From the NCBI GenBank assembly GCA_025331445.1, contig JAIWNE010000081.1:62001-126000 (forward strand): DNA of 64,000 nt. Reading direction: 5' to 3'. The notes under the pieces are model-generated. The model ran no database searches. It was not told the DNA's origin and was given only the letters and a program-made list of their open reading frames with translations. Each line of letters opens with the position of its first letter. The first letter of the stretch is position 1. Positions 3,603 through 53,570 of the stretch are shown here, one piece after another. The translations under genes and the position numbers were made by a program. Source of the stretch: Blakeslea trispora. Its lineage: Eukaryota > Mucoromycota > Mucoromycetes > Mucorales > Choanephoraceae.

Positions 3603-4608
3603 CTAGGAGTCAATTGAGCCTCCTTTGGCAGCAAGCACTTTTTTCATGCGTGATGGCATGCTTGAAACAGTTTTGTCGAGTTATTCGACAGTGATACTGT
3701 TCCAAGCATCCACCAGCATCTCCTCATTGGTTTTTTGGCCCTTAAGTCTGGACCAGTCTTGATGGAAGCGTCGCTTCATTTCACTCCAGACGTTCTCAAT
3801 GGGGTTGAGATCAGGCGATTGAGCAGGCCACTCTATTTTCTCAACCCCATTGAGATCCCTCCACTCCTTGGCAGCTTTGGCTGTGTGGATGCTGGCGTTA
3901 TCTTCCATCAAGACCGATCCGGGATTGCTCTGGAGAAAGCCCAAAAGAACAGGCTTGTAGACAAGGTCTACAAAGTCCTGGCTTGTTCTTCTGTCCTTTG
4001 GCAGGAACACCAACTCGGACTTGTTGCGACCACATATGGCCCCCAAACCATAAAGCTGGTTCGGCCACTCTTGAAAGAAGGCTTCAGGCAGTCCTTGTCG
4101 TATTTTTCCTGTGGCAATCTCCAGACTTTTTTTGCAAGATGTCCTTGCCGATTTCCACGCTGGATTCATCTGTCCAGACGACTTGCTTCCATTGCTCTAT
4201 TGTCCAGTTTCGGTGAGCTTTGGCAAACTGAAGCCTCTTCTCCATATGGGCTTCCTTTAGAAAAGGCTTCTTTGCCGCAACTCTCTTGTTGTAACCCAGA
4301 CCATGCAACTCCTTTGCGATGGTTTGGGTGTGCACCTTTACTGGCAGCTCTTGCTGCAAAGAAGCAAGCGTGACAAATTTGTCCTTTTGGATGGCTCTCT
4401 TCAGAACTCTCTTGCTACGTTCGTCAAGAGATTTGGGTCTTCCAGAGCCCGCAGCTCTTTCAACGGTACCTCTGGCTTGAAATCTCTTGATGGTCCTGTT
4501 AACAGTGACTGGGTTAATTCTAAGTTCTTGGGCAATTTCGATCTGTGGTTGGTTTCTTTGCCAACGATCAACGATGATAGCTTTGAGTTCAGTGGATAAT
4601 TGAGACAT
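3603..4608 (-). pseudogene. Tc1-type transposase pseudogene (Tc1-b)
   Basis: Start chosen at the ATG 4608 (MSQLSTELK), which begins a Tc1-type N-terminal HTH pair with IEIAQELRINPVTVNR and a GSGRPKS linker. Catalytic residues are visible: D in VVWTDESSVE, D in VLMEDNASIH, and E in SPDLNPIENVW, so a DD34E-type triad. Broken by two small frame changes, one in an A-run after DILQ and one in a G-run before AICGRN, plus a TAA at 3681-3683 twenty-odd codons before the natural end SIDS-stop at 3603-3605. Lies inside the 5' flank of Tc1-a. Its own terminal repeats could not be paired. Confidence 0.85.
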
Positions 4609-4663
4609 ATTGTGAGTTTCAAGAAATTTTATTAAGAAAGAGAGGTAGAATGATAGGAATGTA

Positions 4664-4880
4664 CAGTGACCCGCAAAACTGTTCAAAAAGATTTTTTTTT
4701 TTACTTTGAACCTTATGATCGGGTATTCAAACACATTTTAAACCCCTTTTGTCATACCTTGTTGGAAAGCCTCAGTAATTTACTATATGATGACCAGGTT
4801 GCACAAAGATTGGTTGACCTTGAAATGAAAACCACTATTTTAAAAAAAAAAGTCTTTTTGAACAGTTTTGCGTGTGTCCG
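4664..4880 (+). mobile_element. MITE-B, copy 1 (about 217 bp)
   Basis: Begins right after TA (4662-4663) with CAGTGACCCGCAAAACTG and ends with the inverse repeat CAGTTTTGCGTGTG. Almost the same sequence lies in the opposite orientation at 9064-9281. Non-coding. Terminal repeats and TA preference mark a Tc1/mariner-type MITE. The right side lacks a clear TA. Confidence 0.7.
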
Positions 4881-5749
4881 AGAAAAATTATAACCAAGAG
4901 AAGGGGGCTAGTATTTGAAATTATTTTGACGCGTAATTGTTTTTTTTCTTCTTTTCTTCACTTTTTTAAAAGTTTGTGTAAATTTTGGTTGGTTTTGTTA
5001 GACCAATTTAATCGACATTGCTCCATCTAGTTACATCTACTTGACATCTACCAACATGCCCAAACACATCAGCAATGACAAACGAAATGACGCGAAAGCT
5101 ATGCTTTCCAAAGGTAAAAATGTTCGCGAAGTAGCGCGTCAGCTTGGTATCAGTCAAGGTACCGTTTCAAACATTCGTGGTGAGATGAACTTGGAGATTC
5201 CTCAACATGCGGGTGGCCGACCAAGTAAGATCAGCAAGAATCTCGGTCGCAAGGTACTTCAAGGTCTTTCTACTGGCGTTTTCAAGACCGCAAAAGATGC
5301 GCAGCGATTCCTGGCTGATCAACAAGTTGTTGTTTCTGAGGATACCGTGCGTAGGTTTCTCAAAAGCGCCAAAATGACAGCTATTCATAAGCCAAAGGTC
5401 CTTCCTCTAACACCTAAGCGTATGAAAGACCGCTTGGAATGGGCCGAGGCTCACAGAAGTTGGACTATCAACGATTGGAGGTCCGTGATGTTCTCCGATG
5501 AGACCAAAATCAACAGAATTGGCTCGGATGGTGCTCAATGAGTTTGGAAAGCCGATGATAAGGAGTTGAAAGGGTTAAAAGGGGGCTTGTGCACACTGGG
5601 CCCAAATTTGTAATATGTTGTAGCCGGAGCTTCAAAACCTATATTCTGAAAGTTTCCGAATATGGTAATCAATATTGACGGAGTTCTGACCATTTAAAAA
5701 TTTAAACGGGGCGATATAATAACATTTGTTGCCGTTAAAATTTTGCTTG

Positions 5750-5822
5750 TTTTAGTGTAGTGGTATACTCCACAACTTAAAAACGTTAGGTTGCCAGTTC
5801 AACACACGGTGGTTACAAGTTA
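5750..5822 (+). other. tRNA-like sequence in the Merlin left flank
   Basis: Contains an A-box-like GTGTAGTGGTATA and, about 30 bases on, a B-box-like GGTTGCCAGTTCAA. Stems pair poorly, so a working tRNA is unlikely. It points inward from the left end and is mirrored by 8285-8362 at a similar distance from the right end. Confidence 0.35.
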
Positions 5823-5888
5823 AGTATTTACTGATTTTTAGGCAAAAGTAACAATTTATTTTGAAATATAAGAAAAAAAGGAATTTTA

Positions 5889-7660
5889 TTACAACAAATT
5901 TTGTTCTGCTATTCTGCTGCTTCTTCTAAGCGCCACAAAAGGTACAACTAGTTCGTCTGACTCTTGAACCTCTTCTGTCTCAAGATCCAAGGGAAGTTCC
6001 TCCTCGAACGAGTCGTCTTCTTCTGAATTGGAGTCTTCGTCCAAGTTGTCCACCTCGTTGAGAATGGGAGGCTGCAAATCTGACCTATAGAACTGGACTT
6101 CTCTCAATGACTTTAGAAGGCCAGCATAAATATTTGAAGCATATTTGCGCCTCCACATAAACTCTGCCAAGATCCAAGGGGTGTTCTTTCTGGTTCTTTC
6201 TCGTGGAAAGACCCTTATCTTGATGGCGTTCCAAGTTCCTATGGTAATAAGTTAGTAAGATGGTCCTAAGTTAAATTAAAATTCATACCTTCAATAGTGT
6301 TTGTATGTACACCATCCTCAGAGATGAAGCCTTCGCTGTGATTTACTGAGCGGTGAACCATATGACGCCAATCATTGATGAAATTGTAACCGCGCCAAAA
6401 GTCAGTATGGATTGTTGATCCTTGGTTTACATTTGTTTCTATGACTGCTCTAAGAGTGGTAGCATCTCGACGCGGAACAGTCATTAGAAATACTCTTCTC
6501 TCTTGTGTTCTCTCCACACCTCCAACAACCCAAATGCCTTCGACACGATGGCCCCGATGATACTTTCGCTTGCCAAACTTTGATTCATCTATCTCTACAA
6601 TAATAGAGTTGCCATCTCTATCATAACCGCCTAAAAGAATAAAAAGTATCAAAAAAGAGTTGCTACAAAGTAATAAAATACTTACCAATCTTATCGGGAT
6701 GGTTGAAACGCCATCTTTCGGTCAAAGGAACTGTTGATAAATCTACTTGATCGATATCAAGCTGAGGCTCTACTTGATTTACTAACAAAAAATCTTGCTG
6801 CATGTACCTAATGGTAAGACGAATAGTCTCGGGATCAAATCCGGTCAACAAAGAGATGGCTTGTCGGGGAACGTTATACACAAGCCAGAGCAGGATGATT
6901 CGCCATTGATGTTGCACTGGAATATTTCTACCATAGAATACCGTTTGGTGAAGGGCTGAGCGTGAAGACTTGTTACACTTGCAACTGTTTTTATGGCAAC
7001 GCCAAACCCAACCCTAACGCTGGTTCCAGACAAACTTCATGCGTTGGGGCTCGCTTACTAATACATCATCAACAACATCCCCGCTATCATCTTTCCTACG
7101 GCCGCCGTGACAATAAACTAGATCACTAAAGTTGTAAATAATGCGGTGACGAACAAAAAATCTACTCAAAAGTTAGAACTATGTAGTTGTAATGTTAAAT
7201 AAACTTACTCAACCATATCAGTTTCGGTTTGCAAGTCACGCACAAGATCCTCATAGGGCAATGGTTTGATAATAGGGTGTCTTGCAAATGCAATCACTTC
7301 AGGAAGCTCCTCAACAGGCAAGGGAACAGGAATTTCTCGTCCAGATAGGGTGACGTTGGGCTCTTCTTCTAACTGATCTTCGCTTAAGGCGTCATCGAGC
7401 TCAACCTCAGACATCTGGGAACCCATTTCATGTTGGAAAACAGAACCAGGAGGCGACAAAAAAGAGGAAGGAAGACCACCACGAGTTACTCTAACAGGTC
7501 GACCAAGAGAACGAGCATGAGTTCCAACAGAACCTACGTATTCCGATCCCTCTTCAGTCAAAGCGGCTGATGAAGATGACATAAAAACATCCTCGCAAGA
7601 CGAACTTGAGATAAGATCAATAACCTCGGGACCAGAGACAGAGTTTCGAAAGTAATTCAT
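5889..7660 (-). pseudogene. Merlin transposase (ISXO2/IS1595-like), four exons, one nonsense codon
   Basis: Exons read 7660-7209, 7161-6686, 6630-6289 and 6238-5889. Introns of about 47-55 bases have GTAAGT, GTAAG and GTATG donors, and the sum is 540 codons in frame. The N-terminus is serine/acidic-rich. A Cys/His cluster (RCHKNSCKCNKS) and an HTH-like stretch follow. The ISXO2-like core has D in IDESKFGKRKYHRGH, D in IHTDFWRGYN and E in GVHTNTIEG, so the DDE triad is present. The C-terminal tail is acidic. A TAG at 7014-7016, between WNQR and GWVWRC, interrupts exon 2, so this copy is probably inactive unless the stop is a sequencing error or is read through. Nested in the Tc1-a gene. Confidence 0.85.
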
Positions 7661-8284
7661 TTGAAAAATAGAATATAATGAGAAAGAGATAAAGAAAAGA
7701 AAAAGAAAAGAAAAAACTCTCCTATTTATACTATTTTCTGAGAATAAAATTTATGAAAAGGCAGTCCAAAATTTTCTATTGAGCGGTCACATTTCAAGTA
7801 ATTAGTGATCAATGTGACTTTTAATTGATGACTCACAGAAATTTTTTGTGACATAATAAAAGTAGAATACGTCAGTAAGCCGTTGACGTCAACTGTGTAG
7901 ACGTCATCATCGAATTTAAAGTAATAGGTGATGTCAGGTCTGGAAAATTCATAGCAATTTATTATTATTTTTCTTAATTTCTTTAAGCCTTATTGTGTTT
8001 TGACATGTTTGACATCCTTATTCCCGTGTAATTGTTATCCTTTTTTTGTAATTAAAATCATTGTACCCATCAGTTAATTGTTTTTCTTTATGCATCACTT
8101 TATTTTTATATTTCATGTTAGAAACCTGATGCTCATCACTTAAACCTTTTAGTCTAATCGGTCCATCATTATCTATTTATTTTCTTCTCCAAGTGAATTT
8201 GATAGCTCTCATTTGACTTATGTGACCAGCTCATGCCCTTCGACAGATGCAAAGGTATTTTTTTTTTAAAATCTCAAAATTTTT

Positions 8285-8362
8285 TTTTGCAAAAAGCAAG
8301 AGTCGAACAGGCGACCTTTCGTCTTATGTACTGACGATCTACCAATAATACTACAGATAATT
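8285..8362 (-). other. tRNA-like sequence in the Merlin right flank
   Basis: On the minus strand it shows TATTGGTAGATCG (A-box-like), a TCGTC/GACGA stem and GGTCGCCTGTTCGACTC (B-box-like). The anticodon loop would be 9 rather than 7 bases and the T stem has mismatches, so it looks like a tRNA-derived relic rather than a gene. Confidence 0.4.
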
Positions 8363-9063
8363 TAAATGATAAGAAAAATTTTAAATAAATTCAACCTAAT
8401 TCAGTCACGTGACTTTTACAAGATGTTGATTATCTCGAGAACTAGACCTTCCTAAAGTGGCAGAGTTGTTTCACAATACTTTTAACACTTATATCTATCA
8501 TACAAGCACAAAAAATTACCAGTGTGCACAGGCCCCCTAAGATCCGTTGAAAGCGTTTCAGCTTGACCATCTCTACAAGCATGGAGGTGGTTCCATCATG
8601 CTTTGGGGCTGCTTTTGTTGGAAAGGTCCAGGCTTTCTTGCGAAGATCAATGGCAAAATGGACTCTGAGTTGTACACTCAAATCATAGACGATGAGTTGG
8701 TCAGATTGCTAGAATTCTATGGTTATACTAAGGATGACGCCATATTTCAGCATGATAATGACCCCAAGCATACTTCCAAGCATACCAAACGTCATCTCAA
8801 GGATTGCAACATTCAAGTTCTCGACTGGCCGTCCTTCTCGCCCGACTTGAATCCCATTGACAACCTTTGGAGTATAGTCAAAAGACGTTTAGCTGCCTTT
8901 GACACTGCTCCAGGCTCTATTGCTGAGTTATTTGATCGTGTAACTCAAATTTGGAACAATATTGATCCTGAAACATGCAACAATCTTGTTGAAAGCATGC
9001 CTAATAGAATAGCTGATCTTATTGCCGCTAAAGGTGGTCAAATCCCTTATTAATAAAAATATA

Positions 9064-9281
9064 ATGCACACCCGCAAAACTGTTCAAAAAGACTTTTTTT
9101 TTTAAAATAGTGGTTTTCATTTCAAGGTCAACCAATCTTTGTGCAACCTGGTCATCATATAGTAAATTACTGAGGCTTTCCAACAAGGTATGACAAAAGG
9201 GGTTTAAAATGTGTTTGAATACCCGATCATAAGGTTCAAAGTAAAAAAAAAAATCTTTTTGAACAGTTTTGCGGGTCACTG
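9064..9281 (-). mobile_element. MITE-B, copy 2
   Basis: Inverted copy of 4664-4880, with CCCGCAAAACTGTTC at the left and GAACAGTTTTGCGGG at the right. TA lies on both sides (9062-9063, 9282-9283). It sits 11 bases downstream of the Tc1-a transposase stop, inside Tc1-a. Confidence 0.75.
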
Positions 9282-9353
9282 TAAGACGTGTCATACATTT
9301 ACCCTTCTTTTACGGAGTCTTAAAAATTAACATTTTTTTTCGTTCTGACTGTA

Positions 9354-12879: not shown

Positions 12880-14034
12880 CAGACCGAAATGGCCCTAACA
12901 AATTGGTTCATGCAAATCCAAGACATTTTCCTTTTCAGTACAATTTTAGCTTGGATCTGTCAATGAAATCATACTTTCTTCCCATCACTGCCATATTTCT
13001 CATATATACTGGCCATTTTTTTAATCCCCTATTTTCGTTCTTTTCTCTTTTTTTCATTATATGCACAGCAAAAGGTAAGCACTTTTATCTTTTTTTTTTC
13101 AAATATCATATAATCCATCAACATCACTGACTCTTTTATTTAGCAATAGCTACATGTATATCACATTATGATGACAACATCGCAATAATTCGACTACGCT
13201 TCTTTTTCTATTTCATAGCATCTTCCACCTCACTATCCGTATTTATTTGCTTATCATCAACTTTATATACACTTATATACATACTCATCATAAACTCTGA
13301 TTGACAATCCTTTATCCATGTCACCTTCTTCTGTGCCACTTTTCACCATCTCATCCATGACTATTTGATCCAAACTGCCTGCTCTATTCCATGTTGCTCA
13401 AACTCAAACTTCTTTATTGATATCTGAATACCATCTCTATTTATGCTGCCTTTCTAGATTGATGCCTCTTTTTCAAATTACTCTTGCCTTGGGTCTTTCG
13501 GGTTTCTCCATTTGTTTGTCTATCTTAGTTTATGCACTTCGTTTACTAACTTACTTTGTTTGTAGTCATTGTCTTGGAGCCTTTTGACAAGCACACATTC
13601 AATTGCTTACCATGCTTTCATCCCATGTCTGACTTATTCATGTCTACCTTCTTTCTTATGTGCTCATCTGGTCTATCTCTTCAAGTATTGCCACCGGTCA
13701 TTGTCCTAAATTCAAGAGATACTTTTTCTCTCTGATATACCGTCATTTGAGTACTGAGTCTCTTCTCATGTCGCCATCTCTCTACCTCATCTTCAGAAAA
13801 TAAACTCTATCCACCTATTTTCCTTCCAATACTGAGGTCTGTGCTTTTGAAGGTTATAATCTCTTTTTGATTGAACTTGGGTTTCCTTCCAACTTTACTG
13901 CTTATTTTTTTCTTCTTTTTGTGTCTTCATGTCGTTGCTCATGCTTGCATGTGTGCTCCATCTTAGATGAGGTTGCCTCATCTCTTTGAATCTCTTTTGC
14001 GACAAGTGAAATACCACTTCCAGACTATTTTTAC
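12880..14034 (-). repeat. CACTA-like 3' arm (copy A), first part
   Basis: Reverse complement of copy B at about 31400-30250. For example, 13900-14030 matches 30250-30390 inverted. Non-coding. It ends in ATTTTTAC (14027-14034), the target duplication of MULE-1, and continues at 18282. Confidence 0.75.
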
Positions 14035-14149
14035 GGTGAATACTTGGCGCACTCCGGTAGAACACTCCGGTGGCTTAGATATTATAGGTAGTGGCTTATG
14101 AGGACGTCCTCATTCTTAGTTATGCTAGTAATAAAATATGTGTGTAACA
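14035..14149 (+). repeat. MULE-1 terminal inverted repeat, 3' side of gene
   Basis: Matches the reverse complement of 18160-18273 from GGTGAATACTT to the final GTGTGTAACA. It includes the short palindrome GAGGACGTCCTC. Confidence 0.93.
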
Positions 14150-14430
14150 CTCCACTAGACATTGTTGCATAATTATTATGGATTGAAAATCCGAAGACAA
14201 AGTAGCTTGTTTGAATTCGATTGAAAGTGTGTTGTTAATTTATATGAATAATTATGAGTTAATAAAATAAAGAACAAAAAAAAAGTAAAAGAGAAAGGGT
14301 TTGTCTAATCTAGAAAAAGTACTTCACTATTGCCATTATCTGTCATGAAAATTAATAAAAGGAACTTGCAGTTATTCAATGTAATCTTACCTGGGTTTTT
14401 TTCTCTGCTTTGAAAGAACAAATAATGATT

Positions 14431-17400
14431 TCAGAAGGTGCGCTTGAAATTAGGAGAAATAGCAAGAGACTCACATGCACTTTCATACAGACTGGGTTGT
14501 GGCAATGGCCAAGTTGGTTTGATTGCTCTTTTCATGCTTAGAGTAATGAAATGATTGTCATTAACTCTTTGCATAAGCAGAGGCATCTCTTTCTTCTTCT
14601 TGGTTTCTTGCTTGACAATCAGGGGCACAAAAGTACATGGTGGCGTGTTCATGTACTTTTTCTCTGCATAGGTAGCCACTAACCTTTGGAATGTGTCAGC
14701 GGCTAACTGTGCACATCCTGGTAAGGTAAACCAGTAGTCTTGGCCTGCATAAGTAAGCGATTTGTCGACCTTTTGGCAACCAACTGTGGCTTGCAAACCA
14801 AAACAAACGATCGACTTCAGCTCTTGGTAATCTATGAACCCCTTCAGGTGCTTCTTGTAAAAGCCTGTGCTTTCATCTTTGCCCTCATCCATCGTCAAGA
14901 GAAAGTCTCTCATCATCATCTTCACCTCCCAAAACTTCTCTTCATCGCCGTACAACTGCACTGCTAAAGCTCTAAAGCCACAGAATCCGTCAGCACGTAC
15001 ATTGATAGCAGCAGTGTACCAATTCTTTTCTATAGATGGATGTATCTGCTCGATAAGAGACAGATACTCCATTTCTTCTTCTTTCAACAACTCATCATCA
15101 CTCTGGCTTTTTTCGACTTCTTTTCTTTCTAATTTTACTGAAGATACAAGTTTTAGATGCGAGTTAATAGAAGCCAGAGTATTAGTGAGTAACATACCTT
15201 TTATCTTTTCATTGTCGCTTGTCTTCTGTTTTTTATCCTTTTCTGCCTTTTCTGCCTTTTCTGCCTTCTCATCCATCTTTCTCTTCTTTCCTCTTTCTTT
15301 ATCAGCCTCCTTCAATTTTTCTTTGGTAATCTCAATACCAATTTTGTTTCTCTTTGAAAGTTTTGGCCTTCCTTTGTGAACACTAGCCAGAGTAGGTGCT
15401 TTCACACTACTGATATCGTTTGGAGCTAATCTTTCAATAAGCTCCTCCATACTATCAAGAATGTCTTGTTTGTCTTGGTATGTCTTGCTATTCAAGAAAA
15501 CTTCGTCTAATTGGTTTCGCAAGTGTTCGTACTCAATAGAAAATTCTTTTTGAACTACATCTTGATATTTTGTTGAGACAATCCCTTCAGTAATTGCTCT
15601 AGTTTCAGGATGACCAACTTTTTGAACTAAAAAAATTGTTAGTCCATAGTCGCGATTCATAAACATTTATTTATCATTATTATCGTACCGTCTTCGTTCA
15701 TGAAAAAGATGTGCCATCTAGGATGAACCAAGTCAAGCTTGACTTGTCCGTGTTCTTCGACACATTTGACCAGCTCGTGTCGGCAAGGCAATTTCCATAC
15801 CTTGACAAAGCAAGAGCAGACAGGACTCAATATGCCTTCTTGCTTCTCTTTTAGTCCTTTGACTAATTGATTCTTTACTTTGATTAATGCAAATTTAGTG
15901 ATAGCTCTGTATATAGGCTTGAGCATATCACTAACTTCACTAGTAAGAAGAGAGACAGGGATAGACATACTTTCTCTCTCCATTTGAGACTTCAGGTAGT
16001 CCTCCTTCAGACTTGAAATTAGCAATTGTTGAAAATTATAAACATGTAGTAAAATTTACCCTTATCTTGTACCATTCATCAATTTTGTCAGTCACTGGAC
16101 CCAGCTTGCCTTTTGACGAGCCAATATAGCCTTTCATTGCTGAATGGGTTCCCTCTACTCTGTTTGTAGACCTGTTGTTCATATGAGGATGCTTGTTTGC
16201 ATAATAGCTTCCCCATTGAACTTCTACTTTCATCATCCTTCATGTAAAATAGAAACAAATTATTGAGATTATTTCTGAATTGAATATGAACAGCACAACT
16301 TACAAATCGAAGTATTCTAGGCATGTGTTTTTGTTGATCAAAAGCCCCTCCTGGTTCAAAAAATTCACGTATGCTTTTTTGGCTTCTTCATAGCCTTCTT
16401 TCGTGGTACAACCACGAGCAATTGCAAAAAGCAAGTTTCTGTGCTCTGCCTCATAATTGTCACGAATATCCACTAAGCAATGACAAGATATTCAGATTTT
16501 GGTTTAGATTTTATTAAAGTATCAATTGATTATTTCGCTTACCAGTAAAATTGGGGTTAATTTCCTTCAAAAACTTATCTCTGAAATGTCGTTCTATATG
16601 AATGTAGCAGAGCAGTTGAGAAGACTCAGAAAATACATCACTTAAAGCCCCTTTTAAAGCAGCGTCATTGTCAGTTACAAAGACACTAGGCAAGTCGAAC
16701 TGCTCAGCTGCTGGTCCAGATGGCCAAACAATTTCTCTCAATTGTTCTAAAGCCCACTTGTAGTTGGACTTCGTCTCTCTTTCCATCCAAGCGGCAGCCA
16801 CAGGAATAGTTGCCAATTGCTGTGGTCTTTCTCTACTAGCAACCGTTCCAGCAATGACAAAATTGACAAGAGCATACAAATGACAGTTGCTCTTGTAAGT
16901 GGCATCTACAACGACAGACTCGGGAAGCTTGCGCAATTCTTTAATTGCACTGTCTCTAATAAAGAAAACAGCCGTGATTCTGTTTTCTGAATTGGTAGTG
17001 TAACGAACATTGTATTGTTTGCGTTGCAAATCAGTAACAAACGAAGTCATATCAGAACCAGAGCGGAATTGCTGTTGCATGTTTTCCAAATCCTTCTTTT
17101 TCATATAGTTGATGTTTTTGACTTGAAGCATCTTTTTTTAAGTGTCACATTAGTCAAGCTATTTTTCATTCTAGTAATAGTTCCCAAGAATATACCTCTT
17201 GAACAACAGAAGGTTTGTTTTTTTGCAATAGCAAAATTGCCTCTTCAAAAATATCAGCATCAAGCTTTCGATGCAAGTGATAGGTGAGAGGATCGTTCAC
17301 AATACGATGATTATGACTGCCATCAACACTTCTCACAGTGACAACTTTTCTAACAGGGCATAGTCTAGCCTCAATAACACAAGGACAATCGAACTTGAGG

Positions 17401-18080
17401 CTTTCTTTCTTGTATTCTTTGGACTTTGAATTTTTGTTACTGTTGACAAGATCAACATCAGTAACTTTCTTGGAGCGTCTGTAGTCCTTTCCATGTCTAC
17501 AAATCATTCTAATTCTTTGCTCTTTTTGACTTGATTTGTCAGTTGTGATTGGGCAATTATATTTTTTGCCGAATTCTTGAGCACGGATACGTAATTCATC
17601 AATATCCGAAAATTCTGTGCCGACAGAAAACAATTTCTCCATTTCTTCTTTCATCAATGCACAGACCTGCAAGTCCTTATCCGTGCAATGAAGGAAACTT
17701 TCCTTACTGGTCTTTCCTTCATACTCTTCCTCATCGGTTGAATAATCTTCCAAGTTGCTTTCATACTCGACACGTTTACTGACAAGTAGCTCTAATATTT
17801 ATTTTTTATTTTAAACACAACAGGCAACTTCATATTCCAGAGAATCTAACATAAAGTGCTATTACACACCTTCAGACTGAATTTCAGATATATCTTCAAC
17901 ATCGACTTCAGAATCAGAAGTGTCAATAGTGATGACTTCTTCTTGAATCTCGAGATGACAACTCGTCTCAACTTTGACTTGCTCGTTATCAAAAGGTTTG
18001 ATGTCGATACCAGCACTACAGATAGATATTTCATCGTCCGAGGCTTCAATATCAATATAAAGCAAACTGTCTTGATTCAT
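14431..18080 (-). CDS. MULE transposase fused to OTU-like cysteine protease domain
   Basis: Exons 18080-17870, 17791-17196, 17131-16543, 16472-16304, 16237-16060, 16004-15689 and 15626-14431 give 1084 codons plus stop with no break. A 60-base in-frame segment near 15137-15196 could be an eighth intron. Order: acidic N-terminus; FAR1/WRKY-like Cys/His region (CPIT...DCPC...SHNHR, about 130-235); MULE core with D in VVVDATYK (about 347), D in FVTDNDAAL (about 415) and E in TNRVEGTHS (about 544); SWIM finger CSC...CRH (about 645); AT-hook-like KGRPK and a lysine-rich stretch (about 770-830); OTU-like domain with DGFCGFRAL (Cys about 902) and NDNHFITL (His about 1045). The core would move the element; the OTU part is predicted to cleave ubiquitin-type bonds. 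The fusion reading is mine; no protein was tested. Confidence 0.87.
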
Positions 18081-18159
18081 TTATAAAATTATTAAATAAG
18101 TGTTGACAAAGGGCTTTCCAGGGCCCATTGCTTCATTGACTTGATCTTTTCAGGTACAT

Positions 18160-18273
18160 GTTACACACATATTTTATTACTAGCATAACTAAGAATGAGG
18201 ACGTCCTCATAAGCCACTACCTATAATATCTAAGCCACCGGAGTGTTCTACCGGAGTGCGCCAAGTATTCACC
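18160..18273 (-). repeat. MULE-1 terminal inverted repeat, promoter side
   Basis: Inverse of 14035-14149. It lies about 80 bases upstream of the transposase ATG (18080), so it probably overlaps the promoter. Confidence 0.92.
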
Positions 18274-18281
18274 ATTTTTAC

Positions 18282-19628: not shown

Positions 19629-19775
19629 GAGTAATACTTCGCGCACCCACTTTTCACACTCACTTTTTAAATACACCCCATTTCTTGCACCCACTTTTTA
19701 AATACACCCCATTTCCTACACCCACTTTTTAAAAAACAAATTTTTTGCTTTCCTCTCCCCCATTTTTTTTAAAAT
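19629..19775 (+). repeat. MULE-2 left terminal repeat with internal duplication
   Basis: Matches the reverse complement of 46151-46264. It contains two tandem copies of the unit carrying GCACCCACTTTTTAAATAC, where the right end has one. Confidence 0.85.
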
Positions 19776-19914
19776 CAGCAAGACTTTTATAAGTTGACAG
19801 AATTGAGTTAAAATATATTTTAGAAGCAAATAAAAACATGTTGCAGTAAACACAATAAAAGAAAAAAAAGCTAAGGGACTAATCAATGCTAAACTGGTCT
19901 TTGAAATATGTCTG

Positions 19915-21280
19915 TTAGAATCTGTATGAATTGTAATATGTATATTCAGTACCTGAGTTTTTTGGTAATTGTTGTGCAAAGACAAGATGGTAAGCCCATA
20001 CGGTTTTCTTGATATTTGTCTGTTTACCAAAATTGCTCGCTGCGAACTCAAAGGAAGAATCAGGTAAAGGACAAGGAAACTTTTTGGATCGTCTCAATCC
20101 CAATGTAACCCAATGGTTGTCGTTCACTCTTTGCAACAAGACAGGTTGAGGGAGCTTCTTCTTGATCTTGGCATCTGTGTAGTCGGGCAAAAGAGGAAAA
20201 TAGCTTACTCCTCTTGTACTTGTATACTTTTTTTTGCTATAGAGCACAACAGGCACAAAAAAAGTATCAGCTGCAAGCTGTGCACAACCAACAGAAGAGA
20301 AATAGTGTTCTTGACCGCAGTAGAATACAACATCACCGTTATCTTCGTTGCTCGAGAAAAGTTCATACTTGATTGTCTCGCTGCCAACTTCTTCTTCAAT
20401 ACCATAGCATACCCTTTTCTTAGCATCCTCAAAATCAAATTAATCTTTGAAGATGTCTTTGTAAAATTTTTCATTGTTCAAAAGGGTATCTCTCATCTTC
20501 TTTTTGACAGTCCAAATTTCATCTTCATTGTCGAATATCTGGACAGCTAATGCTCTCCATCCACAAAACCCATCACCTACAACATCGATAACTACGCTGT
20601 AGTTGTCCTTTGGTATGTTGGGATCAACTTGCGAAAGTAAACGGTCATAGTAAGAGTCTATTGTTTTGCGAATATTGTCTTGCGTTAGTATTTCGCCCTT
20701 TGTATTGAACACAATGCATACCAGCAGCTTCTAATTCTTCATCAGTGACTTCTTGACTTTGTTCTTCATATTCATCTTCTAGAACTACATCTACTTTAAG
20801 CTTTTTGGCAGTTGTTTGGTGATTTGCATTGCTTTTTCTTTTCTTGTCTGAACTGAGAGTCTTAAGAAGATTTTTTCTTTTTTCCAAGAAGGCTTCCATT
20901 GCTCTCTCTACACCTATCTTTTGTCGCTTGTCTTTCTTTGGCCGGCCTTTGGATATCATTGACATTCCTGGGTTTTTTACCAAATCCAAGCTATCCTCCT
21001 TAGCCTTTTTTTCAACTGTTTGAAGGTTGTCGAGAATTGTCTGCATCTCTTGATGCGAGACTGATTCTGTGAAAATCTCTTCAATGCTGTTGAACAATGT
21101 GTGTAGCTTATACAGATATTGCTTTTTTAAGCTATCCATCAACTCAAACTTCTTCGATCTTCCTGTTACTTCAGACACCTTCTGACTGTTAGCATGCAAT
21201 GCTTCTACTCTTTCTTCTTCGTCTTCGTTGTCTTGTGGTACATCAGGAATACCACCAATCATATATATACTGAAATAACA
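19915..21280 (-). pseudogene. MULE-2 C-terminal part with decayed OTU-like domain
   Basis: Corresponds to the last exon of MULE-1. It keeps the same order: coiled/charged stretch, ISKGRPKKDKRQKIG (AT-hook-like), VVGDGFCGWRALAVQ (OTU Cys motif), GCAQLAADTFFVP, and VNDNHWVTLG (OTU His motif). Lesions: a frame change near 20712-20720 (after EAAGM) and a TAA at about 20440 between FKD and FDFEDAKK. The minus-strand gene is separated from its transposase exons by the Helitron. Confidence 0.82.
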
Positions 21281-21673: not shown

Positions 21674-23176
21674 ATGAGTAACATTTCGCCATCAACATCA
21701 ATTAAAGAATGCACTACATGTGGTTCGACTTTCGAGCATGCTACATTTAGTACTTGCGATACATGTCGAGTAAGATTTGAGCTACAACTAAACAGCAAAA
21801 TATCTCACTAACTTCATTCTATTTCATAGGAGCGTAGACAAAGAACCTTAAGAAACAACAATCGTACAGCCAACGACAACGAACCTAGAACTCGACAAAG
21901 AAGAACTCAGTTACCTGCAGCATATGTTTCTGAGCTCTCTCGCCTCCAGCAGTTCGATTTAGGCTCAATGGATCAAGTCTGCGACAAATGTGGTGCTAAG
22001 CACTGGAAGGCCGAGTTACCTTCCAACTCAACTAGAAATAACGTTTTTTGGATGTCGTGTTGCAAGGCTGGTGCTGTTAAAGTAGATTTGCTCAAAGATC
22101 CTCCCTCATTTGTGAAGGGATTGTATGAGGATATTACTTCCCGCGGACAGCATTTCAAAAATAACTTGAGGCGCTTTAATGCTGCTTTCGCTTTCACTTC
22201 TTTGCGTTGTGAAGTGAGCAACAGCAACCTCACCAACATGCCCTTCCAAATTCATGGTCAAATGTACCACACTCAAGGGCCAATCTCTGCTGAGAATCAT
22301 AGTCAGGCTAGATACGCCCAACTCTATATCTTTGACCCTGAATACGCAGCATCAATTCGAGCTGCAAACAATGAGGACTTAGACAATGAGTTAGTTCGAG
22401 GATTGTCTACAGAGCTTCATCAATGCAATCCTTATGTAGGACTTTATAAGACTGCACATGAGCTTCTTGAAGGTACAACAGAAGAACAGTCTTTCATTCG
22501 GGTTTACCCATCATTGAAGATGGAATTAGTGGCTGGTAAAGATAGACGAACTAAAAATGTGCCTACAGCCAGTGAGGTAGCTGCTATCTTACCAAATGAG
22601 AGCTCTTCTGATAGCTTCAGAGTAATTCGAATTTACCTTCGTCATTCTGAGGGAGAGTTTTCTTTTTCTACCATCTCACAAACACATGCGTTGTATATGC
22701 CTTTGCATTACACATTGCTGTTTCCTATGGGGGATTTGGGCTGGAACTGGGGCCTAAAATTAGATGATCAAGAAAGTCGTCTCACACAAAGAGCATACTA
22801 TAGATTCAGACTTCATCAAAGACAGCAAGAATTTCCTACTTTGTTTTACGCAAAAAGACTCTTCCAACAATATTTGGTTGATGTTTGGGCCATCTGCGAT
22901 CAAACAAAATTAGACTGGATTAAAACGCATTAGTCAAACATTCGTGCTGACCTCTATAATGGTGTGCAAGATGCACTTATTTCTGAGGATGTGGATGCCA
23001 CTTCTTTGGGCAAACGCTTCATCTTGTCAAGCTCTTATACAGGCGGAGCAAGATTCATGGCCAAGCAATACCAAGACTCAATGGCTATTGTGCGTTATTT
23101 CGGAAAGCCTTCTTTGTTCATCACATTCACAGCTAATCCTCGCTGGATTGAGATCCAAAGAGAATTGCTACCTGGC
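21674..23176 (+). pseudogene. Helitron RepHel, N-terminal part
   Basis: ATG 21674 (MSNISPSTSIKECTTCGSTF) starts a small Cys finger, then an intron (donor 21769, acceptor before GAGCGTAGAC at about 21830). A second Cys cluster CDKCGAKHW...CC follows, then the Helitron-like N domain (GQMYHTQGPI, HALYMPLHYTLLFP). A TAG at 22931-22933 interrupts KTH/SNIRADLYNGV. The segment ends in LFITFTANPRW...RELLPG, where gypsy-1 enters. The next residues QNASDRPDLV lie at 28960. Confidence 0.87.
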
Positions 23177-29300: not shown

Positions 29301-31180
29301 CACCACGGCGTAGAGGGTGTATATAGTGACTCTAATAATTGTGAAATAACCCTGCGATATATTTGTTTTTTTCATATGCGGTTTCAATGAAAAATAGGCA
29401 GAAACACAAGAATTGGGCCGTGGGTAAAGTATTATACGAGCTTACTTTAAATAGGAGTGCTTTATAGTCGAATCATATCTAGCTTAGGTCTCAAAGGGGA
29501 GTTATAATGACAGATTGCCTTCGTCGTATAGAGCGATAGTGATTTAACAAGTTTTAGATGTATAAGCAATAAATGGGCTAATCGTATCGCTTTAATTTTT
29601 GGATGAGCTTGGAATATGATTGGCTTATTTAGGTATTATGGGCAAATCAAGCTTCTTTATTCTTATTAATTTGAATCAAATATATGCTATATACGGGTTC
29701 TTCTTTAGGCTGATTTGTAGCTCAGATGTCCTTTTTTGTAATAGGGATGCTGCATTGGGTATATCCAGATAGACTGGCATGCTTGGCTTTAATATAGGTA
29801 CCTTTTGGGATCATGGGAAGCAGTATAAGAATCAGAAATGAATTAATTTCCATGATTAGAGCCTTCAATTCGCACCTTAATCGCTTTGTAGTAGCTGCGC
29901 TTGAAAAGATATATAGCCTTAACCGAGAGTAATTTTTTCGAAATTTTTTTTTTTTTAACAGCCATCTTGAAGCAACATGCAAGGTCATGAGCAACACCAA
30001 CTGAGAGATTACTAGTCACCAGTATACAAAAGAGTCAGAAACAATAGAGGAAGAAAGTAAATAGCATAGCAAGTCTATAAAACAAAAAAAAACAAAGATG
30101 AGACGCGATCCTTTACACATGTACTTTGTCATCAGCATGGTGTGTCCTTTAGTTGCGATTAGGTAAACTCATGAGTCCAGCCAACAGTGAGAGCAACAGT
30201 CAGAAGTAAACAGTTGATAAAGAGAAGTTCATTCGGTAAGACAGTCAAGTCAAAATAATCTGGAAGCGGTATTTCACTTGTCAGGAAAGAGATTCAAAGC
30301 GATGAGGCAAGCTCATCTGAGATGGAGCACCCATGTAAGCATGAGCAAAGGCGAGAAGACACAAAAAGAAAAAAAGCACAAGCAGTAAAGTTGAAAGGAA
30401 ACCCAAGTTCAATCAAAAAGAGATTCGGCAACCTTTAAAAGCACAGACCATAGTAGTGAAAGGAGAATAGGCGGATAAAGAGCATTTCTTGAAGATGAGG
30501 TAGAGAGATGGCGACATGAGAAGAGACCAAGTATCCTGAACGACGGTATATTAAAGGGAAACTGTAGCTCAAAAAGCTAGGGCAATAACCAGAGACAATA
30601 CTTAGATAGGTGGACCACATATGCACATAAGAAAGAGGATAGACATGAATAAATCTGACATAGGATGGAAGCATGGTAGGCGATTGGATATACGATTGTC
30701 AAAGGGTTTCAAGGCAATGACTACAAATAGAGCAAGTTAGTCGATGCAATGTATACAAAAGCATTTGAACATTTAAATGGAGAAATCGAAGGACCTTAGG
30801 CAAGAGTAACTTGAAAAAGACGCATCAATCCAAATAGACAGCCCTTTAAAAGATGGTATTTAGAAAACAGTCAAAGAGGTATAAGTTTGAGCAACATGGT
30901 ATAGAGCAGGCAGTTTGGATAAAGAAGTCATGGATGAGTTGGCAGAAAGCAATACAGAAGAGTGTGTCATGGATAAAAGATTGTCTATCAAAGTCAATGA
31001 TGAGTATCTACACAAGTATGTATAAAGTGGATGATCAGCAGATATATACGGAAAAAAAGTTGAAGGATTCTAAGAAATAGAAGAGAAGCGTAGTCGAGTT
31101 ATTGAGATGTTGTCATCATAAGGTGATACACATGTAGCTATTGTGAAATAAAAGATTAGTGATGTTGATGGATTATATGA

Positions 31181-40937: not shown

Positions 40938-43318
40938 TTGAAAGACATCTTCAAGGTCGCTACATCGGTCCCACTGAAGCTTTTACTCGCATATTTGAGT
41001 ACAAAATCCACGAAGAACATCCGACAGTTACACTTTTAGCATTACATCTCCCCGATCAGCAGCCAGTTTACTTTTCTGAGGATGCCACTCCTTCTGAGCT
41101 CCGAGACACTCTTGCCAAAAGTCGCACTATGCTAATGGCATACTTTGTCTATTACCAAAACAATCCAACTGCTCAAAAATATCTGTATCAAGACTTTCCG
41201 CAGTATTTTATTTGGGATAAGAAAGATAGAGTGTGGAAGCATCGACAAAGAGGATTTGCCATTGGTAGAGTACCATATTGTAGCCCACAATCTGGCGAAC
41301 GTTTTTACCTTCGATTGCTTTTAACAAACGTAGCTGGATCAAAGTCTTTTGAAGATCTTCGAAGTGTAGATGGCGTACAGTGTGAAACATTCATGCAGGC
41401 TTGCTTAAGACTTCACTTGATAGAGAATGATCAGGAATGGAGTCATTGCTTTAATGAAGCTGTCATGTTTTCAACTGGCAGTTCTCTTCGCAACCTTTTC
41501 GTCACTGCTTTGACTTTTGGTCAATTGATTGATCCAGCATTGCTTTGGGAAGAATTTTGTCTCGACATCTGTGATGATTTAGCTCATAAGCTACGAACTC
41601 TGTTTCCAGACCAACTTCACGAAAAGTATACAGTAACTGATGACAGCCTGTTTTACAAAGGTCAATCTAAATGTGATTATGGCTTATTTCTGTTGGACGA
41701 ACAACTCGGCCGCCTTGGTTCATCTTTAGAGACATGTGACATGCCAGCATACAAGAATGATTGGACTAATGATCTCGAAGTACTGGCCAATTCACAAAGG
41801 GCATCTTCAAACAGATTGATAAATGAGCAACTTGCATATGATGTCGAATTTGAAAAAGCAGCTTATGAATCGAAATATGCTCTTTTTAACCAAGACCAAA
41901 GAAATGCTTTTGATACCATTGTGAATGGTATTGAGTCTTCCGTAGCAGACAGTACAATTTCATCTGACTCTTAATACGTCTGCTATTTTCTTCATGGTCC
42001 AGCAGGTACTGGTAAAACCTTTGTCTACAATGCTCTTTGCAACTACTTTCGTAGTCAAGAAAAATTTGTTCTGTGCGTTGCATCTTCTGGTATTGCATCT
42101 TTGCTTCTTTCTGGTGGTCGTACGTCTCATTTCAGATTCAAGATACCTATAACAATCAAAGAGACTTCCCTCTGTCACATAACAAAGAAAGGTCGTCTAG
42201 CTGATTTGTTAAGAAGAACAACTCTGATTATTTGGGATGAGGTACCGATGCAAAACAAACTTTGTTTTGAAGCTGTTGATAGAAGTTTAAAAGATGTATG
42301 TGGTAACGATAAGCTGTTTGGCGGTATACCTGTTGTGTTGGGTGGAGATTTTGCTCAAATCCCTCCGGTTATCAAAAATGGTAATCGTGCAATGATTGTT
42401 GATGCCTCGATTAAAAACTCATACATTTGGTCAAGAATAACCATCTTACAGCTTCGCATTAACATGCGTGTCCGAGGAACAACCTCTAATGATGCTCACT
42501 TTAAGAAATGGCTTGATTTGATTACGTACCATCCGAGCTTTCAAAACCAAAAAATTTCTGTTCCGGATTATATATCACAAACACTTTCACTTGACAAGTT
42601 GATTTCAAAGATATATCCTAAACAAGATCTTGATCAATCATTAGAAAATCCTAACTTCTTTTTCAAATCAGCTATTTTGACTACACAAAACACAGTTGTT
42701 GATAGCTTAAACCAAATGGTGTTGGACCTCATGCCTGGGGATTCAATAACCTTGCTCTCTGCCGATACTGCTGATACATCAGAACAAGAAAATGACGAAG
42801 TACATCGCTTAGCTCCGGAGTATCTTCAAACTCTCAACCCTCCAAACTTTTCACCTGCAAAGCTTACATTGAAAAAGGGATGTATTGTTATGTTATTAAG
42901 AAACTTAAATCCTCAAAAAGGTTTATGCAACGGTACAAGGCTTATTGTCAAAGATATCCTTTCGTACACGCTAATAGTCTCTGTATTGCAAGAATGTGGT
43001 TCAGAAAGCGAACAAATAGAAGTAATTCCTCGAATTCAACTATCAACATTAGAAAATGAATACCCCTTTATCCTTACACGAAAGCAATTCCCTGTCAAGC
43101 TAAGCTTTGCGATGACTATCAATAAGTCACAAGGCCAATCATTAGAAAATGTTGGAATTGATCTGCGCAACCCTACTTTTACTCATGGACAACTATATGT
43201 TGCTCTATCAAGGTCAACTAACCTAAAGGGAATTCATATTCTTCATCAACCAAACTCTGATAACACTAACTATAGCAAAATAGAAAACATCATTTATCCT
43301 GAACTACTTTTGAATTAA
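40938..43318 (+). pseudogene. Helitron RepHel, C-terminal part with PIF1-like helicase
   Basis: Continues from 35957: ERHLQGRYIGPTEAFTRIF, the DUF6570-like/linker region, then the helicase. Walker A is HGPAGTGKTFVYN (about 41995). Walker B-like is LIIWDEVPM (about 42230), then GGDFAQIPPV (motif III), LRINMRV, and the C-terminal MTINKSQGQSLENVGI and YVALSRST (motifs V/VI), ending at 43318. A TAA at 41972-41974 separates the linker from the helicase. In life it would unwind the donor DNA during rolling-circle-like transposition. Confidence 0.9.
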
Positions 43319-43418: not shown

Positions 43419-43492
43419 TTCCTCTTACTACAAAGATGATTACAATTTAAAACAAGAGGTATATCAATCACGCAACTCTCTTAAAAATTTAC

Positions 43493-45566
43493 CTTGGCCA
43501 TTTTGGTACAATATGTGCCATCGTTCATGAACTTCTGTCAAGGGAATGCAGCCATAGGTCTTAATTGCTTTGACAAGAGTATGCTTACAAGGAAGCCTGA
43601 GGCAATTCTTTGTATAGCAAGAGCAGTCATCGTCATCAAGTTTGCCGGCTTCTTCCAAAGCTAGCCCTTTGATCAATTGGTTCTTGATCTTAACCAAGGC
43701 AAAAGCAGTTACTCTTCTTACTAAGGGCTGAAGAAGATCGTAGACAGGGCTCAATACAACTTCTTTTCTCACAGTGAGACTTTCTTTTTCTTGCTGGTGG
43801 TTTCTGTAATTCTCCTAATAATATTTTAGTATTATGTAACTTATAGAAAGCTGTCAAATTCATCTTACTCTAATTTGGTACCACTTATCAATTGTCTCAG
43901 TAACAGAACCAATGAAGCCTTTTGAGTTCCTATTGAAATGCTGAATAGCAGCATGAGTTCCTTCTACCCGGTTGGTGGTACGGCAGCCCATGTGTAAATA
44001 TTGATCAACATCCAAAGAAATCCAATGCTTTCTCTGAGTAAGCATTCTAAAGGTATGCAGTAGTATGTTAATAAGTCTTCAAACAAATAATTTCTGTTGA
44101 CTATTTACCCATTCATATATTCCATCAAATCATCAGTTCCACCTGCCTTTAACAACCCTTCTTCTTCCATCAGGCTTCTGTACCTTTGCATGTATCATTT
44201 AGCTGCTCCTCCGTTTTACAGCTCAAAGCAAGTTCATTGATAATGAAACTCAATTTCTCGCGTCTATCCTCGAGTTTCTCTTTGTCTATAATGAATAGTT
44301 TTTAGAATTGATTACAAACGAGGAGCAAAATAAATACCTTTCAACGAAAGCATGTTTTCAATGAACTTTTTCATAAAGTTGTGCTTTATGTGCACATAGC
44401 ACAAGACATTTAAGGATTCAAGGAATACTTCTTTAATAGCATGTCTTATGCTGGCATCATTATCCGTCACAAATACCTTTGGGAGTTCATTGCTTGAACC
44501 TTCCGGCCAAGCAGTATTTCGAAGGGCTTTCAAGGCCCACAAGTAACTTTCTCTAGTCTCTCTATCCAGCCAAGCAGCAGCAACAGGAATAGTAGCAAGC
44601 TGGTTTCCTTTTTGTTTTCCTTCTCTGGAAGCCAGAGTGCTAGGAACAACAAAGTTGAGCAGCTTCATTTTCTGCTTGTTGGAGTTATAGGTTGTGTCTA
44701 AGACAACAGCTTCAGGGAAGCGACACAACTCTTCGACGGCATTGTTGTGGATGAAGAAAATTGAGTTGACCCTGTTCTCTTCATCTACGCGATAGCTAAC
44801 ATGATAGCCTTTGTCCTGAAGATGTCTGATAAAATCAGACATATTTTCATCGTTTCTAGTAATCAGCTGCTTCATGTTGTCGAGATCCTTTTTGATGATG
44901 TTGTTCACACCAAGAAGTCCCAAGAACTGTATCATATAGATTTAAGCATTAGTAAAAGATGTTTGTATCTAGTCCAAAAAGATAAATTCCTCTTACCCCC
45001 AAAGTCTCAGAGGATGTCTTTGTACGGAGCAATTCTACAGCAATTCCATAGTTCTCAGGATTCAATGTTCTAGCAGCATGGTAACTAGTAGGATTTTTGG
45101 CCAACTGGTGGTTGTGTGCGGAATCTGAGTGCTTGATAAGAAATTTGCCAGTCTTCTTTACTACATAGCCGTAGAAATAACAGGGACAATCCAATTTTGT
45201 AAGCGAGCTGTTGACATTGTCGGAAGACCCATTTTCGATTACGGCAGTGGCTTTCTTTCCAGTTCGGTACTTTCCACTGTGAACACAAGCCATAGTCAAA
45301 CGACCGGTCTTCAAGTCCGAGGTCTTTGTTACCATGGGGCAGTTATGCTTGAGACCAAGGTTCATAGCTGCAGTGCGAGCTGAATCCAAACTGTCAAACA
45401 TTGAGCCTGGGCTAAATTTGTCTTCGAATTCAACAGTTAACCGGTTATAAGCAGGATCTTTCTTGTAATCCTCGAGATCAACAAACATATCAGTAGTACT
45501 TCTGGATTCGCTTTGGATATTCAAATTTGTATCTACAGTACAATCTATGGTTTCTGTATCGCTCAT
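43493..45566 (-). pseudogene. MULE-2 transposase (FAR1-like region, MULE core, SWIM finger)
   Basis: ATG 45566 (MSDTETIDCTVD). Zinc region CPMV...DCPC...SAHNHQ. Core D in VVLDTTYNS, D in FVTDNDASI, E in TNRVEGTHA. SWIM finger CSC...LPCKH. Introns are after LG (donor 44996) and after LK (donor 44337), with further ones near 44050 and 43850. A one-base frame change near 44205, before YMQRYRSLMEEEG, disables it. The last exon here ends QNGQG at a donor (43492), and the OTU exon lies across the Helitron at 21280. MULE-1 is a clear relative with the same exon plan. Confidence 0.85.
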
Positions 45567-45590
45567 GTTTGAATTCAAGTTGCAAAAGGT

Positions 45591-46094
45591 GTAAGAAATT
45601 TGAGTTGTTTAAGAATAAAAAGGCAAGTGAGTACTTTGATAACTTTTTGTTCTAATAAAGAGAGAAAATGTTACTAACTAATGAATTTACAACGACTATT
45701 TATACAAAACGACTTGAGATTGGTTTATCCGAGTATTTAAGCTAAGAGTAGAAATGATTGTTGATGAGCAAGCTTCAAACACTTGCTCTTGTTATAACAA
45801 TGGCTATTATTATTGATGTATGACTAGTTTGGAACTGTACTAAGGGATTGATTGGTTTAACTCTGAAGTTGATCTCAGCTGTCACTTATAATTAGGATAC
45901 GCAATTTATCTGATTGATACTCAGTCTGAGTCTACGTAGTTATATCTTGCATTTCAGGGTGAATCCCTTAGTCTTTACTTGACTAGGTAATGATTCCAAT
46001 TCAGATACATAGAGTTCATTTTGTAGAATTTTTCTTTGACTACAATGATACTTCAATACACATATTTAATATAGCAGTTATGGTACAATCACTA
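45591..46094 (+). mobile_element. MITE-A, copy 2
   Basis: About 504 bp, closely related to 1131-1636 throughout. CAAAAGGT flanks both sides (45583-45590, 46095-46102). It is inserted between the MULE-2 start codon and terminal repeat. Confidence 0.72.
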
Positions 46095-46150
46095 CAAAAG
46101 GTTTTTATTGATATTCAGATCAGGGACCATTGGTTTGAAATCTTTCTGAC

Positions 46151-46264
46151 TTTAAAAAAATGGGGGGAGAGGAAAGCAAAAAATGTGTTTTTTAAAAAGT
46201 GGGTGTAGGAAATGGGGTGTATTTAAAAAGTGAGTGTGAAAAGTGGGTGCGCGAAGTATTACTC
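46151..46264 (-). repeat. MULE-2 right terminal repeat
   Basis: Inverse of 19629-19775 except for the extra tandem unit there. Confidence 0.87.
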
Positions 46265-47860: not shown

Positions 47861-47897
47861 TTTTTTACTTTGAATATTCTATTTATTCCTCACTGCC

Positions 47898-52994: not shown

Positions 52995-53045
52995 GATTCT
53001 AATAGAGAATAGAGATCATGTACAACCCCAATTGTGGTTGACATT

Positions 53046-53565: not shown

Positions 53566-53570
53566 GTATG

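What the first reader, a model, noticed from the sequence alone, without database searches (positions are those of the whole stretch)
14035..18273. Intact MULE transposase fused to an OTU-like protease domain
Seven exons join into 1084 codons without a break. The C-terminal 180 or so residues carry the OTU signature (DGFCGFRAL and NDNHFITL with suitable spacing), after a MULE core with its D, D and E and a SWIM finger. Some plant MULEs carry an Ulp1-type protease; an OTU-type deubiquitinase welded to the transposase is not something I know as a described system. It could protect the transposase, or the transposition complex, from ubiquitin-dependent removal. Near-identical 115-bp ends argue for recent movement.
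Basis: partly seen in the sequence, partly recalled or inferred. Interest (0 to 1): 0.82.

Follow-up and report, generated by a model that had tools for sequence, protein, structure and literature searches.

The report
Jumping gene carrying a deubiquitinase-like domain
A family of jumping genes in a bread-mould-like fungus makes a transposase with a ubiquitin-removing-enzyme-like domain built into its tail, which suggests that these elements may counter the cell's ubiquitin tags themselves; close cousins of the idea are known in other transposons, and this particular copy has lost the last few residues of that tail.

Summary
The fusion is real and not a one-off. 14035-18273 is a 4,239-bp MULE with identical 115-bp ends and an 8-bp target duplication; a paralogous empty site lies in the same window. 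Six introns join a finger region, MULE DDE core, SWIM finger, lysine-rich linker and OTU-like domain into 1,084 codons; most intron positions recur in divergent relatives. The OTU assignment rests on profile matches to OTUD5 and VCPIP1 (Cys half only) plus the His motif; Pfam's OTU models stay under cut-off and no usable structure could be predicted. Genome-wide, 87 of 141 MULE places have an OTU hit downstream on the same strand (2 upstream, 0 opposite); two loci hold both in one frame of about 1,010 codons. OTU and DDE parts show similar purifying selection. Correction: "intact" is doubtful. This copy alone has TGA where six sister copies have TGG, cutting a conserved C-terminal W-x-x-x-L-x-F segment. 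Prior art: OTU listed for a Hydra MULE (MuDR-6_HM), and on Ginger1 and Helitron proteins; Ulp1 on other MULEs. Filed as a new fungal variant of a known kind. Best mechanism: in-cis deubiquitinase protecting transposase or transpososome; plausible, untested.

The parts
14035..18273 (-). MULE-OTU element, 4,239 bp, gene on minus strand
14027..14034 (.). target site duplication ATTTTTAC, left
18274..18281 (.). target site duplication ATTTTTAC, right
14035..14149 (+). terminal inverted repeat, 115 bp
   Evidence: 100% complementary to 18159-18273
18159..18273 (-). terminal inverted repeat, 115 bp
17870..18080 (-). exon 1, start codon at 18080; acidic N-terminus
17196..17791 (-). exon 2; Cys/His region read as a FAR1/GCM1-like DNA-binding finger (label recalled; about residues 162-269, sub-threshold Pfam hit PF15299)
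16543..17131 (-). exon 3; MULE DDE core, PF10551 at about 16595-16915; D345 at 16904-16906, D423 at 16670-16672
16304..16472 (-). exon 4
16060..16237 (-). exon 5; catalytic E550 at 16153-16155
15689..16004 (-). exon 6; SWIM finger residues 644-657, about 15777-15818
14431..15626 (-). exon 7; lysine-rich linker then OTU-like domain, ends at TGA 14431-14433
14434..15087 (-). OTU-like domain, residues about 867-1084; Cys902 codon 14980-14982, His1045 codon 14551-14553
14431..14433 (-). private TGA stop at the codon that is TGG (Trp) in the six sister copies; truncates a conserved C-terminal segment
29933..30425 (-). paralogous copy of the target repeat without the element (empty site; single ATTTTGAC at 30249-30256)

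Best explanation
This is one copy of a small, recently active family of Mutator-like DNA transposons in a Mucorales fungus (closest named relatives: Choanephora cucurbitarum). Its single gene makes a transposase with a C-terminal OTU-like domain. Shown: the element, its ends, target duplication and a paralogous empty site, a spliced frame with introns shared by relatives, the same order of domains across many divergent loci of the genome, kept Cys and His, and purifying selection on the OTU part. Inferred: the domain is a working deubiquitinase that acts in cis, trimming ubiquitin from the transposase or from proteins of the transposition complex, so that the enzyme persists long enough at its ends to cut and join. 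This copy carries a private stop that removes the last conserved segment of the domain, so its own OTU may be weakened.
For: Ends, TSDs, empty site. Spliced frame with introns shared by relatives 41-66% identical. MULE domain. OTU profile to PDB: OTUD5 3e-7, VCPIP1 1e-4; OTUD5 5e-7 with own-genome copies alone. Cys in 17 of 17; His in 13 of 13 members with a residue there, 4 gaps. Census: 87 of 141 MULE places with OTU downstream, 2 upstream, 0 opposite. Same stop-free frame for both: C222 1,012 aa, C232 1,009 aa. An NCBI-listed predicted protein of C. cucurbitarum (P0018) joins SWIM and OTU start. dN/dS OTU 0.11 and DDE 0.10 for the same pair of copies; OTU 0.08 and 0.15 in another subfamily.
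Against: No activity, expression or splice data. Profile matches cover only the Cys half; the His part rests on a motif. Pfam OTU and C65 models stay under their cut-offs, and PF02338 finds only 3 other places in the genome. The only structure model has mean pLDDT 36. 54 of 141 MULE places had no OTU hit downstream. The window copy lacks the last conserved segment; the five sister copies translated all show frame damage in my alignment, and the sixth (C34) holds an insert and was not translated, so no copy is shown to encode the full protein. The D of D-x-x-C is N or E in 2 of 17. Some copy pairs give higher dN/dS on few changes: OTU 0.35 and DDE 0.26 for window against C34, DDE 0.47 for C76 against C257.
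Confidence: 0.5

Rival explanations
1. The OTU domain is an active deubiquitinase but its target is host chromatin or repair factors at the cut sites, steering repair after excision rather than protecting the transposase.
For: PMC2836005 (discussion passage read) proposes such a repair role for OTU and Ulp1 domains of transposons. The fusion would deliver the enzyme to the break. Fusion and selection as.
Against: No data here distinguish substrates.
Confidence: 0.25
2. The domain removes or processes a ubiquitin-like modifier (SUMO or another) or serves as a ubiquitin-binding tether, without deubiquitinating activity.
For: Other MULEs carry Ulp1, a SUMO-protease type (PMC2836005 passage). The Asp of D-x-x-C is replaced in 2 of 17 relatives; the family is far from Pfam's OTU models.
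Against: Cys is kept in 17 of 17 and His in 13 of 13 with a residue there; the best PDB matches are named OTUD5 and VCPIP1, the latter 'deubiquitinating protein'.
Confidence: 0.12
3. The OTU part is a separate gene or captured passenger that only lies next to the transposase, and the joined gene model is wrong.
For: Relatives show a possible extra intron just before the OTU part, at residues 853-871, so the OTU part may be its own exon there.
Against: One stop-free frame holds both in C222 and C232; shared introns; same strand and order in 87 of 141 places with 2 and 0 in the controls; in the window the linker and OTU part share one uninterrupted exon.
Confidence: 0.04
4. The C-terminal domain is not an OTU fold at all; the Cys and His motifs are convergent.
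For: Sub-threshold Pfam scores; PDB profile match confined to the Cys half; no usable structure model.
Against: OTUD5 and VCPIP1 are matched at 3e-7 and 1e-4, OTUD3 weakly (0.23); unrelated chains appear only at E above 0.2 in the three profile searches. A viral chain listed as RNA-dependent RNA polymerase also matches (1.3e-4); that it is a viral OTU domain is recalled.
Confidence: 0.05

Closest known systems
MuDR-6_HM (Hydra), group 14 in PMC6446971 (Dupeyron 2019, author recalled)
   Same: MULE, single ORF, 'Ovarian Tumour Gene' listed as extra motif (Table 1)
MULE-Mucorales, group 5 of the same table
   Same: Mucoromycota, one ORF, SWIM finger
   Different: Listed with 10-bp TSD, 40-bp TIR and no other motif; this family has 8-bp TSD, 115-bp TIR and an OTU-like domain. 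Sequences not compared
Ulp1-carrying Mutator elements (hydra, lancelet, plants, as cited in PMC2836005)
   Same: MULE elements with a cysteine protease of the ubiquitin/SUMO type
   Different: Ulp1/C48, not OTU; the five C48 matches in the own genome lie on contigs with no MULE place
Ginger1 transposons with C-terminal OTU (PMC2836005)
   Same: DDE transposase with OTU at its C-terminus
   Different: Gypsy-integrase-type core and CCGG/CCGT target sites; here a PF10551 MULE core and A/T-rich 8-bp TSDs
Helentrons with OTU (PMC6431247, passage read)
   Same: Mobile-element protein with an OTU-like cysteine protease
   Different: Rolling-circle Rep-helicase, not a DDE transposase

Membership tests
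Mutator-like elements (MULE) | MULE transposase domain over Pfam cut-off | tested here: met
   PF10551 52.9 bits, cut-off 27.6
Mutator-like elements (MULE) | D, D, CxxH, E catalytic set | tested here: met
   D345, D423, C444-H447, E550 (motif recalled)
Mutator-like elements (MULE) | Terminal inverted repeats and 8-11 bp TSD | tested here: met
   115-bp TIR; 8-bp TSD in 6 of 6 two-ended copies
OTU deubiquitinases | Cys box and downstream His conserved | tested here: met
   Cys 17 of 17; His 13 of 13 with a residue there, 4 gaps
OTU deubiquitinases | Detectable homology to known OTU enzymes | tested here: met
   Profile: OTUD5 3e-7, VCPIP1 1e-4; Cys half only
OTU deubiquitinases | Pfam OTU or C65 model over its curated cut-off | tested here: not met
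   window: C65 14.3 bits against 24.3; C65 in 7 of 17 and PF02338 in 1 of 17 members at E up to 1, best 0.017 and 0.011. So called OTU-like, not filed as a Pfam OTU member
OTU deubiquitinases | OTU fold with catalytic geometry | tested here: inconclusive
   single-sequence model pLDDT 36; alignment job failed, tool off
OTU deubiquitinases | Ubiquitin cleavage | not testable with these tools
   needs purified protein
Ulp1-carrying MULEs | C48/Ulp1 domain in the element | tested here: not met
   no C48 hit in the protein; 5 C48 matches in the genome, on C25, C226 and C258 only
Ginger1 | Gypsy-type integrase core, CCGG/CCGT TSD | tested here: not met
   core is PF10551; TSDs ATTTTTAC, TAGATCTT, ATTATTTA, ATTAGAAA, AAATAGTA, CATTTTTT
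MuDR-6_HM group | Sequence clustering with MuDR-6_HM | not tested
   its sequence is not held here

The most novel reading that the evidence does not exclude
A whole radiation of Mucorales MULEs carries its own deubiquitinase as a standing, selected part of the transposase, a transposon-encoded answer to ubiquitin-dependent host control, parallel to the Ulp1 solution of other MULEs.
Probability: 0.4. Interest if true: 0.7.

Novelty: new variant of a known kind. Interest (0 to 1): 0.52.

Why it matters
OTU and Ulp1 proteases are attached to several unrelated transposons (Ginger1, Helitron-like elements, some MULEs; PMC2836005 and PMC6431247 passages). A large fungal set in which an OTU-like part has stayed with the DDE core from about 95% down to about 25% identity, under comparable selection in the pairs that could be measured, gives a comparative and biochemical system for asking what ubiquitin has to do with transposition, a question raised in PMC2836005.

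Tried and rejected
Full-length protein search of the large protein collection: none at E 0.001 among the 7,992 candidates scored; search with the OTU region of the full-length protein: none of 374 candidates. So no full-length fused protein was found there. The OTU alignment found 18 proteins, among them Pilaira, Rhizopus, Mucor, Apophysomyces and Choanephora ones; that search only admits proteins of 0.55-1.75 times the query length, so it could not show full-length fusions. Viral contigs: 174 pattern matches, none confirmed. Pfam and NCBIfam give no OTU call over cut-off. phmmer of exon 7 alone reaches OTUD5 only at 0.15. Single-sequence fold: meaningless, not searched further. Considered and rejected: OTU as a neighbouring gene (frames in C222 and C232); chance proximity (controls); Ulp1 misread as OTU. 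Literature: ten searches; in their listings and in the passages read of six papers (PMC6875170, PMC6431247, PMC2836005, PMC6446971, PMC7928374, PMC10318531) I saw no OTU on a fungal MULE. Muszewska 2017 on fungal cut-and-paste transposons is not held and may hold it. Rows left out were second pieces, linker-only or doubtful pieces, or places already listed, chosen by eye. The genome searches are capped, so all counts are lower bounds. dN/dS between subfamilies is not usable, synonymous sites being saturated.
Full report
What is there. The element at 14035-18273 is 4,239 bp long, with two 115-bp inverted ends that are 100% complementary and an 8-bp direct duplication, ATTTTTAC, at 14027-14034 and 18274-18281. 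It sits in a dispersed repeat; a second copy of that repeat at about 29.4-31.3 kb of the window, reversed and 85% alike, has a single ATTTTGAC at the matching point, so this is a paralogous empty site. A 701-bp piece of the repeat has 40 matches in the genome, of 141 candidates.

Family. The window lies in a 37.2-Mb assembly of 285 contigs. The 115-bp end was found 16 times: twelve ends of six two-ended copies and four single ends. All six two-ended copies, the window's included, have perfect 8-bp duplications: ATTTTTAC, TAGATCTT, ATTATTTA, ATTAGAAA, AAATAGTA, CATTTTTT. Four align full length to the window element at 99.8, 99.2, 96.1 and 95.6%; the fifth other copy is split by large inserts and aligns in three pieces at 98.5, 98.3 and 96.5%. 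So the family moved recently. The host is probably a Choanephora or close kin: two OTU homologues are NCBI-listed Choanephora cucurbitarum proteins (a Mucorales fungus). This is inference.

Gene model. On the minus strand seven exons give 1,084 codons. 240 of 27,648 intron combinations reach the same stop, so the exact splice choice is open by a few codons. In the five sister copies aligned, all six introns keep GT..AG except intron 2 of one copy. A protein-to-genome spliced alignment of three relatives (C1, C68, C42; 66, 43 and 41% identical), free to choose introns, placed them at residue 268-269 phase 0, 466-467 phase 1, 581 phase 0 and 684-687 phase 1 in all three, and at 522 phase 2 in two (509, same phase, in C42). 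It also placed 2, 4 and 3 further introns, mainly in the variable N-terminus and before or within the OTU part, and the relatives contain 3, 1 and 3 stops.

Domains. PF10551 at 342-448, E 5e-14. D345, D423, C444-H447, E550, and SWIM C644/C646/C655/H657. Upstream, a Cys/His region gives a sub-threshold hit to PF15299; I read it, from memory of the families, as a FAR1/GCM1-type DNA-binding finger. After a lysine-rich linker comes the OTU-like domain.

Is it an OTU? Pfam alone does not say so: C65 at E 0.17 for exon 7 and 0.029 for the domain, below the cut-off. Profiles do. With nine own-genome sequences the best PDB hit is OTUD5 at 5e-7; with 17 sequences from the protein collection and the window, OTUD5 3e-7, VCPIP1 1e-4, OTUD3 0.23, and a viral chain listed as RNA-dependent RNA polymerase at 1.3e-4, which I recall to be a nairoviral OTU domain. 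The matched stretch is the Cys half only. Unrelated chains appear at E above 0.2. The Cys is kept in 17 of 17 members and the His in 13 of 13 with a residue there; the Asp of D-x-x-C is replaced in 2 of 17. The structure check that would settle it could not be completed.

Is the fusion general? In the same genome, 61 of 124 MULE places found with the window's DDE exon have an OTU hit downstream on the same strand, against 1 upstream and 0 on the other strand. With the Pfam MULE model and two OTU queries the figure is 87 of 141 within 5.5 kb (84 within 2.5 kb), against 2 and 0; 54 have none. C222 holds the MULE hit (62041-62559) and the OTU hits (63361-64302, 63694-64392) in one stop-free frame of 1,012 codons, and C232 likewise in 1,009 (same frame by my arithmetic on the coordinates). 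C113 has both in phase with a 701-codon frame; its Pfam MULE match is stop-free, its longer match has one stop. An NCBI-listed prediction from C. cucurbitarum, P0018, joins the SWIM region and the OTU start, although it looks internally deleted. MULE and OTU identities to the window fall together: about 72/73% (C76), 50/40% (C68), 29/25% (C222).

Selection. Between the window and C7b copies, OTU has 28 synonymous and 14 non-synonymous changes (dN/dS 0.11) and the DDE exon 17 and 7 (0.10). In the C68 subfamily OTU gives 0.15 and 0.08, the DDE exon 0.22 for the one pair with synonymous changes. Some close pairs give higher values on few changes: OTU 0.35 and DDE 0.26 (window against C34), DDE 0.47 (C76 against C257). 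On this the OTU part is about as constrained as the catalytic core.

The correction. In the window the OTU frame ends FKRTF-TGA. The six other copies all read FKRTFWNHYLFF. The Trp is present in all 17 loci read and in the window's second OTU, and in 11 of 11 homologues with a residue in that column; the following L and F are kept in most. The window copy is the sole exception. It may be a nonsense change or an assembly error; either way the copy lacks a segment conserved across the family. The five sister copies translated carry frame damage elsewhere in my alignment, and the sixth holds an insert. So none of the copies examined is shown to encode the complete protein.

How it may work. Inference: the OTU part trims ubiquitin from the transposase or its complex. 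In-cis placement, kept Cys and His, and selection like that on the DDE core argue for a working enzyme serving transposition. A role on host repair or chromatin proteins, proposed for transposon OTU and Ulp1 domains in PMC2836005 (passages read), is equally compatible with the sequence; I rank it second only because fusion to the transposase most simply serves the transposase.

Relation to what is known. PMC6446971 (section 6 part 1 of 2 and passages read) lists an OTU for Hydra MuDR-6_HM and none for the two Mucoromycota groups. PMC2836005 (passages) describes OTU and Ulp1 on Ginger1, OTU on Helitrons and Ulp1 on Mutator elements of hydra, lancelet and plants. My ten literature searches showed no OTU on a fungal MULE, but the fungal survey of Muszewska 2017 is not held. 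I call it a new variant of a known kind.

Noticed in passing
19629-21258 and 43419-46264 (minus strand): A second MULE-OTU element of another subfamily; 19943-21259 and 43419-46264 are 97% identical to one contiguous stretch on C42. It is split by a 22-kb Helitron, beginning TC and ending CTAG between A and T.
   Followed up: yes
21259-43418: Helitron with Helitron_like_N (ORF 21830-22933) and PIF1 helicase (ORF 41975-43318), itself holding LTR-type retroelements (23.2-29.0 kb with reverse transcriptase and integrase, 36.0-40.4 kb with gag) and another repeat.
   Followed up: partly
47352-53572: LTR element with chromodomain and one open frame of 1,706 aa; 300 bp of its LTRs are 100% identical.
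   Followed up: no
4084-4737 and 4662-9283: Tc1-type HTH transposase piece beside a perfect 216-bp inverted repeat pair 4,190 bp apart.
   Followed up: no
relatives C1, C68, C42: A possible extra phase-1 intron at residues 853-871, just before the OTU part, hints that the domain was joined through an intron.
   Followed up: no
P0009 (Rhizopus delemar): A 340-aa predicted protein that seems to join an N-terminal His-rich finger-like region directly to the OTU part without the DDE core; a deletion derivative or a separate arrangement.
   Followed up: no
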